DNA from: Bacteroidota bacterium
GTDB lineage: Bacteria; Bacteroidota; Ignavibacteria; Ignavibacteriales; Ignavibacteriaceae
DNA length: 64,000 nt
Direction of reading: 5' to 3'
Assembly: GCA_022564295.1 (NCBI GenBank)
Contig: JADFLR010000009.1
Location: forward strand, 62,001-126,000
Shown here: positions 3,245-11,291 of the stretch, piece after piece
How the letters are laid out: each line of letters starts with the position of its first letter
How positions within the stretch are numbered: the first letter of the stretch is position 1
Made by a program: the position numbers and the translations under genes
The notes under the pieces: generated by a model
What the model saw: only the letters and a program-made list of their open reading frames with translations
Database searches by the model: none
Told to the model about the DNA's origin: nothing

Positions 3245-3260
3245 TGTTTCACGTGAAACA
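3245..3260. promoter_or_regulatory. parS centromere site (perfect palindrome)
   Basis: The 16-bp palindrome TGTTTCACGTGAAACA matches the conserved bacterial parS site bound by ParB during chromosome segregation. It sits between mnmG and mnmE. In many bacteria parS sites cluster close to oriC, and the mnmE-mnmG-rsmG block lies beside parAB. No parA or parB gene is present in this window. Confidence 0.88.
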
Positions 3261-3300
3261 AATTGTTCTTTAATTGCAAATATTTTCTAAAGCGTTTTGC

Positions 3301-3316
3301 TGTTTCACGTGAAACT
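3301..3316. promoter_or_regulatory. Second parS-like site (15 of 16 matches)
   Basis: TGTTTCACGTGAAACT begins exactly 56 bp after the start of the first parS site and differs from it only in the last base. It ends just before the mnmE stop codon. Two closely spaced copies strengthen the reading as a ParB loading site rather than a chance palindrome. Confidence 0.82.
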
Positions 3317-3317
3317 T

Positions 3318-4679
3318 TTATTTTCCAATACAAAATTTTGTAAAGATATTATTTAAAATATCCTCGCTTGTTACTTCTCCTATTATTTCCGCAAGATCAT
3401 TCTCGGCATTTCTTAAGTCTACTGAAATAAACTCACCGCTCATTTTATTTAATGCCGATTCTTTTGCTTTATGCAGATTTTCTTTTGCTCTTTTAAGACA
3501 TTCATAATGGCGCATATTCGAAACTATTGTTGTTTTCTCACTGTACGAAGAATTCCCAAGAGCTTTTTCTTTAAGCAGATTTAATAGATTACTTATTCCC
3601 TCCCCGGTTTTTGCTGATAATTTTGCATCGGCTTTTACATTATTTTTTTCCTGTAGATCAATTTTGTTTAGAACCTTAATAATGTTCTCCTGCTTATTTA
3701 ATCCCTGTAATTCCGAGTAGAGTTCTTCAGAGAAAAGCTGCTCAACATCGCCGAGAAATAAAATTAAATCAGAGTCCTTCACAGCTTCCCGCGATCTTGC
3801 CACGCCTTCCTTTTCAATCTCATCTTTTGATTTTCTGATTCCGGCTGTATCAAACATTCTGAAAAGAACTCCGTCAATCGATACCTCTTCTCTTATCACA
3901 TCTCTGGTGGTGCCGGGGATACTGCTAACAATTGCGCGTGATTCTTTTAAAATGTAATTCATTAAAGATGACTTGCCAACGTTGGTTTGTCCCACAATTG
4001 CTACATTCACGCCATCTCTTATAACTCTACCGAATGAATATGTTGAAAGCAGTTTATCTATTTCTTCAATTACATTTTTAATTCTTTTTATCAGTTCTTC
4101 TTTATCAATAAATTCCAGGTCTTCTTCCGCAAAATCCAATTCAAGTTCTACAAACGAAGATGCATTAATTAGCATCTCTCTTAGCTCATTTACTTTTTTA
4201 GACAGTAAACCATCTAACTGATTACGTGAGCCGCGCAATGATGCTTCGGTTCTGGAATTAATTACATCCGCAACCGCTTCTGCCTGTAATAGATCAAGTC
4301 GATCATTAAGGAAAGCACGCTTTGTAAATTCACCCGGTTCTGCTAAGCGAACACCTTCCGAAATCAATAGTTTTATAATTATTTGAGCAATAAGCGGATT
4401 ACCATGAGTGCTTATCTCAACGGCATTCTCGCCCGTGTATGAGTTCGGCTTTTTAAAAACCGAGACGAGAACATCGTCAATTAACTCTCCATCTCTGCTT
4501 TTAATTTTACCGTAATGAATTGTATGTGAATCTACTTCCGTTAATTTCTTTTTACCGGTGAAGACTTTCTCAATAAAATCAATTGCTTCTGGTCCGCTTA
4601 CTCTTACTATAGATATTGCTCCAGTTCCAGCAGGAGTGGCTAAAGCAATAATTGTATCTTCAATAAATATGTTTTCCAT
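3318..4679 (-). CDS. mnmE: tRNA modification GTPase MnmE (TrmE)
   Basis: MnmE is the dimeric GTPase that works with MnmG on the tRNA wobble uridine. Starting from the ATG at 4679 gives 453 residues beginning MENIFIEDTIIALATPAGTG, the normal MnmE N-terminus. A longer in-frame start at 4757 would add 26 unrelated hydrophobic residues and is rejected. Visible motifs are G1 GQTNVGKSS, G2 TTRD, G3 DTAG, G4 NKID and the C-terminal catalytic C-x-G-K as FCIGK at the very end. The N-terminal THF-binding domain and the flanking helices are present. It is the first gene of the minus-strand mnmE-mnmG-rsmG set. Confidence 0.96.
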   Translation of the reverse strand: MENIFIEDTIIALATPAGTGAISIVRVSGPEAIDFIEKVFTGKKKLTEVDSHTIHYGKIKSRDGELIDDVLVSVFKKPNSYTGENAVEISTHGNPLIAQIIIKLLISEGVRLAEPGEFTKRAFLNDRLDLLQAEAVADVINSRTEASLRGSRNQLDGLLSKKVNELREMLINASSFVELELDFAEEDLEFIDKEELIKRIKNVIEEIDKLLSTYSFGRVIRDGVNVAIVGQTNVGKSSLMNYILKESRAIVSSIPGTTRDVIREEVSIDGVLFRMFDTAGIRKSKDEIEKEGVARSREAVKDSDLILFLGDVEQLFSEELYSELQGLNKQENIIKVLNKIDLQEKNNVKADAKLSAKTGEGISNLLNLLKEKALGNSSYSEKTTIVSNMRHYECLKRAKENLHKAKESALNKMSGEFISVDLRNAENDLAEIIGEVTSEDILNNIFTKFCIGK

Positions 4680-5134
4680 ACAAAAAAATAAAATTATAAG
4701 GATGCAAAAATATAGATAAACCCTTCTATTTACAATGTAAATTTGAGCGCTTCCCAACTTCTTGTAATACTTATGTAGGGGTATAGAAATGGAATGTTAA
4801 TTAAATGACTGAAGCGGTGCTGATGAAGAATGCAGTATTTTTATCTGCCATTTAAAGAGAATATGAAAATAACAAATGATCTATTCAGCCCATCATTAAC
4901 CCTTTCTCCTAAGAACCTGCTGATTGAGTTTGTGAATATCTGACACACAAAAACCCCCATTCTGTCAGACCAACCAAATATTCTTCAGACAATAAGACAA
5001 TTTGTCACTATTGCCTTAAACATCCAAATTATTTGTAACTCATTATATTATAAGGGATTGTTGGGAATAAATGTGTTCGGCACGGGAGTTGTTATTACAG
5101 GGTGAATATAATAAATAAAAAAGGAGCTATAATT
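4680..5134. other. Divergent intergenic region between mnmE and hsp20
   Basis: About 455 bp with no credible gene. It holds an inverted repeat CTGACA (4940-4945)/TGTCAG (4963-4968) and a short palindrome GACAATTTGTC at 4996-5006, both upstream of hsp20. These could be operator sites for heat-shock control. No CIRCE element (TTAGCACTC-N9-GAGTGCTAA) was found. Confidence 0.4.
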
Positions 5135-5587
5135 ATGACATTAGTAAAATTTAACCCCGTAAAAGATCTCTTAGATGTTGAAAGAGAATTTAATAGAATT
5201 TTCAACTCTATGGGCAACAGATTAGGAGTAACCCGCAAAGAAGAGTATGACAACACTGTCTGGATGCCATTAACAGATATTGCTGAAGATAACGACAACT
5301 ATTATTTAAAAGTTGATCTTCCCGGAATTAAAAATGGAGATGTTAAGATCTCTTATATTGATGGAAATTTAAGCATCAGTGGTGAGAGAGTTCAGGAAAA
5401 AGAAGTCAAAGACAAAAAGATTCATCGCATAGAAAGATCTTACGGAAAGTATTACAGATCGTTCAATATTCCGAAAGAAATAAAAGATGATAAAATTAAA
5501 GCAGAATTTAAGGATGGGCAATTGACGATCACCATCCCAAAAGCTGATGAAGTAAAACCTAAAGAGATCGATATTAAGGTTAGCTAA
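5135..5587 (+). CDS. Small heat-shock protein, Hsp20/alpha-crystallin family
   Basis: This is an ATP-independent holdase that binds unfolding proteins in the cytoplasm. The 150-residue protein starts at the ATG at 5135, chosen because AAGGAG stands 8 nt upstream; a GTG at 5102 is in frame but adds only a stub with no ribosome binding site. The alpha-crystallin domain covers roughly residues 38-140, opening with WMPLTDIAEDNDNYYLKVDL and closing with FKDGQLTITIPK, the typical A-x-x-x-x-G-x-L-x-I-x-x-P-K pattern. It is the first of four chaperone genes on the same strand and is followed by a strong terminator, so it is probably transcribed alone. Confidence 0.94.
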   Translation: MTLVKFNPVKDLLDVEREFNRIFNSMGNRLGVTRKEEYDNTVWMPLTDIAEDNDNYYLKVDLPGIKNGDVKISYIDGNLSISGERVQEKEVKDKKIHRIERSYGKYYRSFNIPKEIKDDKIKAEFKDGQLTITIPKADEVKPKEIDIKVS

Positions 5588-5613
5588 TACGATGATACTT
5601 CGGTAGATAAAGA

Positions 5614-5640
5614 GGGCGGCTCATTTCGGCTGCCCTTTTT
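5614..5640 (+). terminator. Intrinsic terminator after hsp20
   Basis: GGGCGGC (5614-5620) pairs with GCTGCCC (5629-5635) around an 8-nt loop, with one G-T wobble, and runs directly into TTTTT. It lies 26 bp past the hsp20 stop. Confidence 0.85.
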
Positions 5641-5699
5641 GTTTAAATACTAAATCCTTCATACCTAAATTTGAAGAGAACAAAAAGTTAAGTTTGTAA

Positions 5700-6641
5700 A
5701 TGGAATTTAAAGATTATTACAAAATACTCGGCGTTGAAAAAAGTGCATCGCAGGATGAAATAAAAAAAGCTTACAGAAAGCTTGCGATGAAATATCATCC
5801 CGATCGCAACCAGGACAATAAAAAAGCAGAGGAAAAGTTTAAACAAATTACCGAGGCAAATGAAGTATTAAGTGATCCTGAGAAAAGGAAAAAGTATGAT
5901 ACGCTTGGTAGTAACTGGAAACAATATCAGTCGCAGGGACAAGGGTTTGAAGATTTTTATTCACATTTTGGTAGCAGTGGAAGAGGTGCACAGTACAGCT
6001 ACTCAGGTAATCTCGATGATCTCTTTGGAAATATAAGTGGTTTCTCTGACTTTTTTGAAAGTTTTTTTGGAAGAAGTGGTGCTGCTGCGGGCAGAACCCA
6101 AAGTGTAAGAAGCAGAAAAGGACAGGATTTTGAAGCAACATTATACATACCTTTGATAGAAACATATAATGGAACAACTAAAGAAATTTCTGTTGGCGGT
6201 AAAAGAGTAAGAGTTAAAATTTCCCCCGGAACAAAAGATGGTAAAAAGCTTAGATTAAAAGGACTTGGCAACGAAGGCATGAATGGCGGTGAGAAGGGGG
6301 ATTTGTATCTCACCCTAAAAATTGAAAAAGACCCTTACTTCGATTTAGATAGTAACAATCTTTATTACGATCTTTATGTTGATCTTTACACTGCTGTTCT
6401 CGGCGGTAAAAAGCAAGTGATAACTTTAGGCGGTAAGACTATAAACATTACTATCCCCGAAGGTACCGACAGCGGAAAGGTATTAAGATTAAAAGGTTTG
6501 GGATTTCCAATTTCGGAAAACAGCAAAATTTATGGCGATCTACTCGTTAGAATAAAAGTAGAGCTCCCCCAAAATTTAACTAAAGAAGAGAAAGAATTGT
6601 TTGAAAAACTTGCTTCTCTTGGAAGCACTAAGAATAAATAA
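5700..6641 (+). CDS. cbpA: DnaJ-family co-chaperone of the CbpA type (no zinc finger)
   Basis: This J-domain protein stimulates DnaK ATPase activity and hands over substrates. Residues 1-70 form the J domain with the HPD motif at 33-35 (KYHPDRN). Residues 75-125 are rich in Gly, Ser, Phe and Tyr, like the G/F linker. Residues 130-305 are the two beta-rich C-terminal substrate domains with the paired [20 protein letters not shown] and [20 protein letters not shown] segments. The CxxCxGxG zinc-finger repeats of true DnaJ are absent, so at 313 residues it is CbpA-like (DnaJ class B). It lies upstream of htpG with a 26-bp gap and probably forms an operon with it. Confidence 0.93.
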
Positions 6642-6667
6642 AATATTAACAAGGAGTATTCACGTTT

Positions 6668-8578
6668 ATGGCAACAGTAAAAACAAAATCAAAAAAGTTT
6701 CATTTTAAAGCTGAGGTAAAGCAGCTGCTCGATATACTTGTTCATTCACTTTATACAAGCAGAGATATATTCTTAAGAGAATTGATTTCTAACTCATCCG
6801 ATGCTTTGGATAAGCTGAGATTTGAATCCAATAAAGGCACTAAAATTATCGATAACAAACTCCCCCTGGAGATAAAAATTACTTTTGATGAGAAGAAGAA
6901 GATTTTAATAATTGAAGATAGCGGCATTGGTATGACAAAGGACGAGATAATTAGCGACATCGGTACGATTGCTAAGTCGGGTTCAGCAGAATTTTTGAAG
7001 CAGCTTACGGAGACTAAACAGGATGCAAGTAATATAATAGGAAAGTTTGGTGTCGGTTTCTATTCTATTTTTATGGTAGCTAAAGAGGTAATAATTAAAA
7101 CCAAATCATACAAAAAAGATGAACCAGCAATTATGTGGAAATCCGATGGGCTTGGCGATTATGAAATTTCCGAACTTGATGAAAAGATTAAAAGAGGAAC
7201 AACAATTGAAATTCATCTGAAAGATGACGCAGAAGAATTTGCCGAAAAGTATCGGCTGGAATCAGTAATTAAAAAATATTCCAACTTTATTCAATTCCCA
7301 ATCTTATTGGAAAAAGAAAAAGTAAATACGGTATCTGCTATTTGGCGTGAACCTAAGAGCTCTGTAACCAAAGAGCAGTATGCTGAATTTTATAAGTATT
7401 TAAGTCTCGATAGCGAAGAACCGTTCGAAACAATTCACACATCTGTTGATGCGCCAATACAATTTAGTGCGCTCCTCTTCATTCCTAAAAAGAGTAATGA
7501 GTGGTTTAAATATAACCGCGAAGATTATGGTTTGGATCTTTATGTAAAAAGAGTATTAATTCAGCATAAGAATAAAGACCTCTTGCCAGAATATTTAAGC
7601 TTTATTGTAGGCGTGGTTGATTCGGAAGATTTGCCGTTGAACATATCGAGAGAAACTTTACAGGAAGATATAATCTTCAATAAAATTTCATCAAGCGTTA
7701 CAAGCCAGGTGCTTTCGTATCTGCAAAAAATTGCTAAAGATGACAAGGGACAATATGTAAAATTCTGGAAAGAGCATGGACAAATTTTTAAACTCGGTTA
7801 TATGGATTTTACAAATGCTGAAAAATATACAGGCTTGCTCAGATTTAATTCTTCATCCTCAAAAGATGCTGATGAATTAGTTTCTCTTGATGAATATGTT
7901 GAAAGAATGAAAAAGGATCAGAAAGAAATTTATTATGCGTTGGGACCAAGCAGAGATGCACTTGCCTTCGATCCCCATCTTGAAATATTTAAGAGTAAGG
8001 GAATTGAGGTGCTTTATCTTTACGACCCTATTGATGAATTTGTAATAAGTGCACTTGGTAAGTATAAAGATTTTGATCTTAAATCTGTTGAAAATGCTGA
8101 TCCAAATAAGCTTGAACAAATGGAATCGGTTGAAGAGAAGAAAGAAGAAACCAAAAAGTTAAATAGTGATGATCAGCTTCATTTCGATAGTTTATTAGCA
8201 AAAATGAAAGAGATACTTGGTGACAGAGTTGAAGATGTAAAAGAATCGAACAGATTAACCGGAAGCCCCTCCTGCCTTGTTGCTAAAGAAGAAGGCATGT
8301 CTGCTTCAATGTTAAAGATGATGAAAATGGTTAATCAGCAGGTGAGCGAACAGAAAAAAATATTCGAAGTGAATAAGGATCATAAATTATTGCGAAATTT
8401 ATTAACAGTATTTAAAAAATCATCTGCCGATGATTACATTAAAAACGTAACGGAGCAGTTATATGAATCTGCTTTGCTGCTTGAAGGATCGCTTGATGAT
8501 CCGCATAAACTTGTTAACAGGTTAAATAAAATGTTAGAAGAATCGAGTGGGTGGTACGTTGAAGTAAAGAAATATTAA
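6668..8578 (+). CDS. htpG: Molecular chaperone HtpG (Hsp90 family)
   Basis: HtpG is the bacterial Hsp90, an ATP-driven dimeric chaperone of the cytoplasm. The 636-residue protein has the GHKL ATPase motifs in order: ELISNSSDALDKLR near residue 37, the DSGIGM ATP-binding loop near residue 84, GKFGVGFYSIFMV near 121, and a GTTIEIHL strand near 178. The middle domain contains PLNISRETLQ, with the conserved arginine that contacts the ATP gamma-phosphate. The C-terminal dimerisation domain is complete, with no MEEVD tail, as expected in bacteria. The start at 6668 has AAGGAG about 12 nt upstream. Confidence 0.97.
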   Translation: MATVKTKSKKFHFKAEVKQLLDILVHSLYTSRDIFLRELISNSSDALDKLRFESNKGTKIIDNKLPLEIKITFDEKKKILIIEDSGIGMTKDEIISDIGTIAKSGSAEFLKQLTETKQDASNIIGKFGVGFYSIFMVAKEVIIKTKSYKKDEPAIMWKSDGLGDYEISELDEKIKRGTTIEIHLKDDAEEFAEKYRLESVIKKYSNFIQFPILLEKEKVNTVSAIWREPKSSVTKEQYAEFYKYLSLDSEEPFETIHTSVDAPIQFSALLFIPKKSNEWFKYNREDYGLDLYVKRVLIQHKNKDLLPEYLSFIVGVVDSEDLPLNISRETLQEDIIFNKISSSVTSQVLSYLQKIAKDDKGQYVKFWKEHGQIFKLGYMDFTNAEKYTGLLRFNSSSSKDADELVSLDEYVERMKKDQKEIYYALGPSRDALAFDPHLEIFKSKGIEVLYLYDPIDEFVISALGKYKDFDLKSVENADPNKLEQMESVEEKKEETKKLNSDDQLHFDSLLAKMKEILGDRVEDVKESNRLTGSPSCLVAKEEGMSASMLKMMKMVNQQVSEQKKIFEVNKDHKLLRNLLTVFKKSSADDYIKNVTEQLYESALLLEGSLDDPHKLVNRLNKMLEESSGWYVEVKKY

Positions 8579-8635
8579 CCTCCCCAACACCTGCGGCGGT
8601 TTCCCCTCCTTTACAAGGAGGGGATTAAGGGGAGG
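8579..8635. repeat. Nested GC-rich hairpin between htpG and clpB
   Basis: An outer pair CCTCCCC (8579-8585)/GGGGAGG (8629-8635) encloses a perfect 9-bp inner hairpin CCCCTCCTT/AAGGAGGGG (8603-8623, 3-nt loop). It starts immediately after the htpG stop and is far richer in G and C than its surroundings. It lacks a T-run, so it is more like a dispersed palindromic element or an mRNA-processing hairpin than a standard terminator. Confidence 0.6.
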
Positions 8636-8654
8636 TAAGAAAGGAAGTGACAAC

Positions 8655-11291
8655 ATGAATTTTAATTTAAATAAACTAACAGTAAAAGCACAGGAAGTTG
8701 TACAAACTGCAATTGAGATTGCGCAGAATTATAACAATCAAATTATAGAGCCTGAACATTTGCTTGCTGCATTAATTCAGGAAAGCGGAAACATTGCCGA
8801 TACTATTCTCAGAAAAATCGGAGGTAATGTTGATGCAATAAAAATAAAAGTAAACGGACTTTTAGAATCGCTCCCAAAAGTTACCGGCTCAGGTGTTGGT
8901 AATCAGCAGATGTCGCAAAACCTTGCTAAACTTTTTGATAATGCTGCTGAGGAAGCTAAAAACCTTAAGGATGAATATGTATCAACCGAACATCTTCTGT
9001 TAGCATTATCTGAAGACAAAGGCAAGGTTGGGCAGTTGTTAAGAGATAACGGTATTTCCCGTGATTTGATTTTTACTGCACTTAAAGAGGTAAGAGGAAA
9101 TCAGAGAGTGACTTCGCAAAATCCTGAAGATACATATCAGTCTTTGAAAAAGTATGGAAATGATTTGAATGATCTAGTTAGAGCAGGTAAGCTCGATCCG
9201 GTAATTGGAAGAGATGAAGAGATAAGGAGAGTGCTGCAGGTTCTTTCACGAAGAACAAAAAACAATCCGGTTTTAATTGGAGAGCCGGGGGTTGGTAAAA
9301 CAGCAATAGTTGAAGGAATTGCACATAGGATTGTATCCGGTGATGTGCCTGAAAATCTGAAGACAAAGAGAGTCATTTCACTCGATATTGGAGCCCTCGT
9401 AGCCGGAGCGCAGTTTCGCGGACAGTTTGAAGAAAGAATGAAAGCTGTAATAAAGGAAGTTGAGAGTTCGCAGGGAGAAATAATTCTTTTTATCGATGAA
9501 CTTCATTTGCTTGTTGGTGCAGGTGCAACCCAGGGCGCAATGGATGCGGCAAATATTCTTAAACCGGCACTTGCAAGAGGAGAGCTGCATGCAATAGGTG
9601 CAACAACTCTTAACGAATACAAAAAATATATTGAAAAAGATGCTGCGCTCGAACGAAGATTTCAGCCTGTGCTTGTAAGTGAACCATCCGAAGAAGATGC
9701 AATATCAATTTTAAGAGGATTAAAGGAAAGATACGAAATTCATCATGGCGTTAGAATAACAGACGGTGCAATAGTTGGTGCCGTGCAATTATCTGAAAGA
9801 TACATTACAGATAGATTTTTACCCGATAAAGCAATCGACCTAATGGATGAAGCAGCATCGAAACTAAGAATGGAAATAGATTCGATGCCGGAAGAACTTG
9901 ATGCAATTGAAAGAAAGGTTAAGCAACTTGAAATTGAACGTGAAGCATTAAAACGGGAGAAAGATGATGCATCTGCTAAGAGATTAGTAGAGATTGAAAG
10001 AGAATTGAGTGACCTTGAAGAAGAAAGAGGTAAGCTTAGAATGCACTGGAATCTTGAAAAAGAAAAAATCCAGAAGATACGTTCGATGAAAAGTGAAATC
10101 GAAAACGCAAAAGTACTTGCTGAACAATATGAGCGCGAAGGCGACCTTGGAAAAGTTGCAGAGTTACGATACGGCAAAATAACTGATCTTCATAGGCAGC
10201 TTGAAGAAGAGACAAAACATCTCGCAGAAATTCAAAAAGATACTAAGATGCTAAAAGAAGAAGTTGATGCTGAAGATATTGCTGAGGTTGTTTCTAAATG
10301 GACTGGGATACCGGTAAGCAAAATGCTTGAAAGTGAGAGAAGCAAACTATTGCATTTAGAAGAAGAACTTCACAAAAGAATTATAGGGCAGGAAGAAGCT
10401 GTTTCGGCAGTTGCCAATGCAATCCGCAGATCACGTACCGGTTTACAGGATGTAAATCGCCCGATAGGTTCATTTATATTTTTGGGTTCAACAGGTGTCG
10501 GTAAAACGGAACTTGCTCGCTCGCTTGCAGATTATTTGTTTGATGACGAACATGCTATGATACGAATTGATATGAGTGAATATATGGAGAAGTTTTCTGT
10601 TTCAAGATTGATTGGTGCACCTCCCGGATATGTTGGATATGAAGAAGGCGGACAGCTAACTGAAGCCGTACGAAGAAGACCTTATTCGGTTGTCCTTTTG
10701 GATGAAATTGAGAAAGCTCATCCTGATGTTTTTAATGTCCTCCTCCAGGTATTGGATGACGGAAGGTTAACGGACAACCAGGGCAGAACAGTAAACTTTA
10801 AGAATACGATAATTATCATGACATCAAACCTTGGCTCACACTTGATACAGGATAAGTTGTTTAACATTAATGAAGAACAGATTGACGAAGTTATGGGCGA
10901 GTTAAGAGAAACCATGGTTAATCTGTTACGAAAAACAATCAAACCTGAATTCTTGAACAGGATTGATGAGATAGTTCTATTCAAACCTTTAATACATAAA
11001 GAGATAAGGAAAATTGTTGATATACAGTTGAATAAACTTATTGGTATGCTGAAGGCAAAAGAGTTGGGGCTTGTTGTAAGTGATGAAACAAAAGATTGGC
11101 TTACAAATCTTGGTTACGATGTAACGTATGGTGCAAGACCGTTGAAGAGAACAATACAGAAGTACCTTATAAATCCTTTATCACAGGAGTTGCTCATGGA
11201 TAATTTTGAAAGCGGCGATACAATATACGTTTCCGTTGGTGATAAGGGTAAGTTGGTGTTTAAAAGAAGCGAAAAACTGATTGTGGAATAG
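8655..11291 (+). CDS. clpB: ATP-dependent disaggregase ClpB (Hsp104 family)
   Basis: ClpB is the hexameric AAA+ machine that pulls proteins out of aggregates together with DnaK/DnaJ. The 878-residue protein has an N-terminal Clp repeat domain (about 1-145), AAA-1 with Walker A GEPGVGKT near residue 212 and Walker B ILFIDELH, the long coiled-coil middle domain that distinguishes ClpB from ClpA/ClpC (about 405-525), and AAA-2 with Walker A GSTGVGKT near 613. The sensor and pore motifs (GYVGYEEGG) are present. The ribosome binding site is AAGGAAG, 10 nt before the ATG. It closes the Hsp20-CbpA-HtpG-ClpB block, a set usually co-induced by heat stress. Confidence 0.97.

What the first reader, a model, noticed from the sequence alone, without database searches (positions are those of the whole stretch)
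3245..3316. Two parS-like sites between mnmG and mnmE but no parAB nearby
A perfect 16-bp parS palindrome and a 15/16 match are 56 bp apart in the 91-bp gap between mnmG and mnmE. Such sites are usually clustered near oriC and bound by ParB. The surrounding mnmE-mnmG-rsmG order is the classic origin-side block, so this should be an origin-proximal region. The parA/parB genes expected next to rsmG are replaced by mfd, which suggests a rearranged origin region.
Basis: partly seen in the sequence, partly recalled or inferred. Interest (0 to 1): 0.65.

Follow-up and report, generated by a model that had tools for sequence, protein, structure and literature searches.

The report
Origin centromere pair beside mnmG
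Two short DNA sites where a bacterium grips its chromosome to pull the copies apart sit beside the gene mnmG; relatives keep them there too, while the genes for the gripping machinery lie far away, in several relatives near the opposite end of the chromosome.

Summary
An exact parS and a 15/16 copy lie in the 91-bp mnmE-mnmG gap, and they are the only sites with at most 1 mismatch in the 4.07-Mb genome. The genome does have parAB and dnaA, but on other contigs, so parAB is at least 86 kb away.

This is not a local rearrangement. In 28 of 29 parS-centred loci from the class, parS lies within 300 bp of mnmG. In 62 of 80 named loci, including several other Bacteroidota lineages, a parS-like site lies within 300 bp of an mnmG end. 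No site was found in 39 parB loci or 14 dnaA loci.

In single-contig relatives, parS is usually near dnaA (7 of 10 within 5.5% of the genome) and parB is near the opposite pole (8 of 10 at 0.41 or more). GC skew sampled in five relatives puts the origin near parS and the terminus near parB. Outside the class, parB-parS distance is 0.11-0.37 in 18 genomes.

Best reading: a genuine ParB-loading centromere at the origin, kept beside mnmG after parAB separated from it. The mechanism is ordinary ParABS; the split layout is the unusual part. ParB binding is untested.

The parts
3245..3260 (.). parS1, exact 16-bp palindrome, 18 bp upstream of the mnmG start codon
3301..3316 (.). parS2, 15 of 16 bases, 1 bp beyond the mnmE stop codon
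1352..3226 (-). mnmG (gidA), the gene beside which parS is kept
   Evidence: PF01134, PF13932; conserved adjacency
3318..4757 (-). mnmE, upstream in the same direction; the listed ORF starts at a TTG, and the true start may lie further in
   Evidence: PF12631, PF10396
653..1336 (-). rsmG (gidB)
   Evidence: PF02527
1..557 (-). start of mfd (full gene at C22:59144-62557), in the place where parA-parB sits in many other phyla
   Evidence: TIGR00580

Best explanation
The pair is the chromosomal centromere of an ordinary ParABS system in a member of the Ignavibacteria. ParB, made from a distant parA-parB operon, loads on the two parS sites as a CTP clamp and spreads; ParA then pulls this origin-proximal region apart after replication. 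Shown here: the sites, their genome-wide scarcity, their placement beside mnmG across relatives, a single ParB with parS-type DNA-contact residues, and an unlinked parAB that lies near the replication terminus in five sampled relatives. Inferred: ParB binding, clamp loading, segregation, and the history that parS stayed beside mnmG when parAB moved away.
For: Two sites in 4.07 Mb with at most 1 mismatch, 56 bp apart. Class: 192 of 294 genomes have a site with at most 1 mismatch, commonly one or two. Of 29 parS-centred loci, 28 have mnmG within 300 bp; the other is a 2.1-kb contig with neither gene. In 25 of the 25 with both genes, a site lies in the mnmE-mnmG gap. Named loci chosen by mnmG: 62 of 80 have a site with at most 2 mismatches within 300 bp of an mnmG end (109 of 124 sites); the reversed control pattern gives 1 site. 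Mismatches sit at positions 1, 5, 12 and 16; central CACGTG hardly varies. Single ParB match over the family cut-off, with ParB_N, HTH_ParB and ParB_C and R173/G201, the residues that PMC7383237 reports as absolutely conserved in ParB (passages). Skew in five relatives: harmonic origin within 0.0005-0.053 of the genome from parS, terminus within 0.010-0.087 from parB.
Against: No binding data. In the window's own genome parS, dnaA and parB lie on three contigs, so distances are only lower bounds. The skew used 20 stretches of 20 kb per genome; G113's harmonic is marginal (permutation 0.053), and the alternative split fit misses the origin by 0.215 in G113 and the terminus by 0.215 in G176. Exceptions: G180, G027 and G221 have parS 0.13-0.33 from dnaA; G032 and G027 have parB only 0.18 and 0.32 from parS; G151 has dnaA and parB 11 kb apart and no canonical parS pair. 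18 of 80 named loci lack a site with at most 2 mismatches beside mnmG. 102 of 294 class genomes lack a site with at most 1 mismatch, some because their sites have 2 mismatches.
Confidence: 0.86

Rival explanations
1. A rearrangement special to this genome cut parAB out of an origin block that otherwise has the usual gene order.
For: rsmG is followed by mfd, not parA-parB; parAB is on another contig.
Against: The same block, with mfd after rsmG, is seen in relatives, and parB is 0.11-0.50 of the genome away from parS in all 28 single-contig genomes measured.
Confidence: 0.04
2. The palindromes act in the mnmE-mnmG-rsmG messenger RNA, as hairpins or as an operator, rather than as a centromere.
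For: The sites lie inside an apparent operon, one 18 bp before a start codon. The gap RNA folds far better than shuffles (z -5.16), as any two palindromes would.
Against: The central CACGTG, which would hold the hairpin loop, is among the least variable parts. Many relatives place a site after mnmG instead, and the spacing of the pair varies from 46 to 721 bp or more. The genome has a parS-type ParB.
Confidence: 0.05
3. Relict parS sites, no longer used, or used by another protein that reads CACGTG.
For: No binding evidence; in two Ignavibacteria loci (one of them from family f8) the palindrome beside mnmG has a different centre.
Against: Strict conservation of a pair beside mnmG in diverse lineages, with the ParB DNA-contact residues kept.
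Confidence: 0.05

Closest known systems
Chromosomal ParABS of Thermus thermophilus HB27 (PMC4409726, passages seen)
   Same: Consensus 16-bp parS in the gid block, close to oriC; one chromosomal ParB.
   Different: There the site is inside gidB immediately upstream of parA, and parAB is about 6 kb from oriC. Here parAB is unlinked and the sites lie beside mnmG.
Bacillus subtilis Soj/Spo0J-parS (PMC7022226, table passage seen)
   Same: Same consensus apart from a free position 5, which is also the variable inner position here.
   Different: The table passage lists ten parS sites, eight in the origin domain. Here there are two, 56 bp apart.
ParABS of gut Bacteroidetes in the OMM12 Hi-C study (PMC10197239, passages seen)
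   Same: Same phylum in the wide sense; parS clusters mark the origin; the paper warns that dnaA does not always do so.
   Different: The passages I saw do not describe mnmG adjacency or the place of parAB.

Membership tests
Chromosomal ParABS | 16-bp parS consensus TGTTTCACGTGAAACA | tested here: met
Chromosomal ParABS | ParB with N-terminal CTPase-type domain, HTH and C-terminal dimer domain | tested here: met
   PF02195, PF17762, PF23552; GERR motif in the translation
Chromosomal ParABS | parS-type specificity residues R173 and G201, not Noc-type Q and R | tested here: met
   G000 reads R,S,K,G at the four positions; residue roles from PMC7383237
Chromosomal ParABS | Walker-type ParA ATPase encoded with ParB | tested here: met
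   AAA_31 (PF13614), directly upstream of parB
Chromosomal ParABS | parS sites clustered near the replication origin | tested here: met
   Met in relatives: 7 of 10 single-contig genomes within 0.055 of dnaA and skew in 5. Own genome: fragmented, skew only consistent.
Chromosomal ParABS | parAB close to parS and oriC (usual, not defining) | tested here: not met
   At least 86 kb apart in the own genome by contig ends; 0.18-0.50 of the genome in 10 class genomes, 0.11-0.37 in 18 others
Chromosomal ParABS | ParB occupies the sites and they are needed for segregation | not testable with these tools
   needs ChIP-seq or deletion
Noc/NBS nucleoid occlusion | NBS-type sites and a Noc with Q, K, K, R at the four specificity positions | tested here: not met
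   Sites have the parS sequence; the ParB residues R and G differ from Noc; score below the Noc model cut-off, 236.7 against 315

The most novel reading that the evidence does not exclude
In the Ignavibacteria, and more loosely across Bacteroidota, the centromere and its machinery are kept far apart by selection. parAB replicates last near the terminus, so ParB supply is tied to the end of replication, while ParB on the parS pair 10-80 bp before mnmG also tunes the mnmE-mnmG-rsmG tRNA and rRNA modification operon, linking segregation to translation.
Probability: 0.1. Interest if true: 0.75.

Novelty: new variant of a known kind. Interest (0 to 1): 0.5.

Why it matters
parS and parAB are usually described as one origin-proximal locus. 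If a large bacterial phylum keeps its centromere beside mnmG while parAB sits far off, near the terminus in several Ignavibacteria, then linkage of parAB to the origin is not needed for ParABS function, and mnmG becomes a handy marker for the origin in fragmented Bacteroidota genomes, where dnaA can mislead. It also offers natural cases for asking whether the dose and timing of parAB matter.

Tried and rejected
A search for more parS in the genome gave one 2-mismatch site on C35, at the level of the reversed control. DnaA-box counts on the own contigs were uninformative for C22; three boxes lie within 260 bp upstream of dnaA on C26 (box consensus recalled). GC skew in the own contigs is weak: the C22 minimum is at 67041, but the C26 minimum is 47 kb from dnaA. 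The idea of a genome-specific rearrangement was dropped. Literature: nine searches. I saw nothing in their listings, or in the passages I opened, on parS beside mnmG in Bacteroidota or on parAB near the terminus. The comparative survey by Livny et al. 2007, which might hold it, is not in the library, so I cannot say that it is unreported.

Full report
Sites at 3245-3260 (exact) and 3301-3316 (one mismatch) lie in the 91-bp mnmE-mnmG gap. They are the only sites with at most one mismatch in the 4,066,394-base genome. Site 1 is 18 bp from the mnmG start codon and site 2 is 1 bp from the mnmE stop codon. The block reads mnmE-mnmG-rsmG-mfd on the minus strand.

The genome does have the machinery. 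A single ParB match above the family cut-off is at C12:21341, behind a ParA of the AAA_31 family and followed by a DUF5683 gene. DnaA is at C26, with three DnaA-box-like words just upstream. From contig ends, parS is at least about 109 kb from dnaA and at least about 86 kb from parB.

The placement is conserved. In 294 genomes of the class, 192 have a site with at most one mismatch. Of 29 loci fetched around such sites, 28 have mnmG within 300 bp and 25 have the site in the mnmE-mnmG gap; the one miss is a 2.1-kb contig with neither gene. Of 80 named loci picked by MnmG similarity (the best 80 of 581, so biased to close relatives), 62 have a site with at most two mismatches within 300 bp of an mnmG end. 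Of 124 such sites in 834 kb, 109 are adjacent, 2 are inside mnmG and 13 are farther off; the reversed pattern gives one site in all. Upstream sites cluster 10-28 and 44-81 bp before the start codon (69 of 78), and 22 of 31 downstream ones lie up to 41 bp after the stop (gene ends extrapolated from tblastn). The named records with such sites include Thermochlorobacter, Kapaibacterium, Rhodothermus, Rhodocytophaga, Algoriphagus, Roseivirga, Brumimicrobium and Sphingobacterium. No site lies in 39 parB loci (137 kb) or 14 dnaA loci (45 kb) of single- or few-contig relatives.

The site evolves as a protein-binding site. Among 140 sites with up to four mismatches beside mnmG, changes fall at positions 1, 5, 12 and 16 (55, 55, 48 and 39), against 0-10 at every other position; the reversed pattern gives 3 sites. 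Selection by similarity to the consensus limits this test, but does not explain where the changes fall.

ParB specificity fits. Of 40 ParBs aligned (own genome, 17 class genomes, 22 others), 38 have R and G at positions 173 and 201, and two, both of family f8, have R and A. PMC7383237 (passages) reports these two residues as absolutely conserved in ParB and changed to Q and R in Noc. The own ParB reads R, S, K, G at the four specificity positions.

Where parS and parAB lie. In ten single-contig class genomes with a recognisable parS, parS-dnaA distance as a fraction of the genome is 0.022, 0.006, 0.040, 0.133, 0.030, 0.010, 0.274, 0.004, 0.055 and 0.331, and parS-parB is 0.414, 0.464, 0.465, 0.500, 0.493, 0.466, 0.322, 0.182, 0.478 and 0.475 (G119, G161, G176, G180, G113, G149, G027, G032, G037, G221). 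For G161, G176 and G221 the site used has two mismatches and was picked because it is beside mnmE. The eleventh single-contig genome, G151, has no canonical pair and was left out; the six genomes with 2-8 contigs among the 17 were not used for these fractions. For G180, G027, G032, G037 and G221, and for all genomes outside the class, lengths are rounded to 0.1 Mb. GC skew, sampled as 20 stretches of 20 kb in each of five genomes, gives harmonic origins 199,665, 1,920, 15,509, 122,709 and 145,992 bases from parS, and termini 227,489, 317,319, 144,525, 258,670 and 32,461 bases from parB (G113, G119, G161, G176, G149; permutation 0.053, 0.002, 0.006, 0.028, 0.0002). The alternative split fit disagrees for the G113 origin and the G176 terminus, each by 0.215 of the genome. 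The five genomes come from two families, so they are not independent.

Phylum comparison. Of 22 single-contig genomes outside the class (out of more that one search showed), 18 have a site with at most one mismatch; parS-parB distance is 0.11 to 0.37, median about 0.25. So the split between parS and parAB is general in this sample, while the near-antipodal placement is seen in the class. In three of these genomes, and in two class genomes, two sites are 1.90-1.95 kb apart, about the length of mnmG, which suggests that they bracket it; this was not checked gene by gene.

Reading. The pair is a real origin-side centromere of an ordinary ParABS system. In Thermus the single parS lies in gidB directly upstream of parA (PMC4409726, passage), so a gid-parS-parAB block exists elsewhere; the simplest history is that parAB left and parS stayed beside mnmG. 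That history is inference; no tree was built.

Noticed in passing
L251:4959-4988 and L245:2812-2827, 2918-2933: Beside mnmG, palindromes with parS arms but a different centre (TGTTTC-TTAA-GAAACA; TGTTTC-TCAG-GAAACA twice). By coordinates L251 (CP054675.1, Ignavibacteria Ch128a) is very likely genome G151, whose ParB has A in place of G201. The same change in G116 goes with two exact canonical parS, so the residue alone does not explain it. A possible shift of parS specificity.
   Followed up: partly
G151 (L251, L104): dnaA, mnmG and parB lie within about 13 kb: the compact origin layout exists in this class too.
   Followed up: partly
window 5102-11291 (+): A heat-shock gene run (hsp20, dnaJ, HSP90, clpB-like) diverges from mnmE; the hsp20 gene is also found in 8 of the 80 named mnmG loci, all among the closest.
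   Followed up: no
C12:20593-22785 (L004, L053): parA-parB is followed by a DUF5683 gene; conservation of this neighbour was not examined.
   Followed up: no
G194: Four DnaA C-terminal-domain matches in one genome, three of them in short open frames.
   Followed up: no
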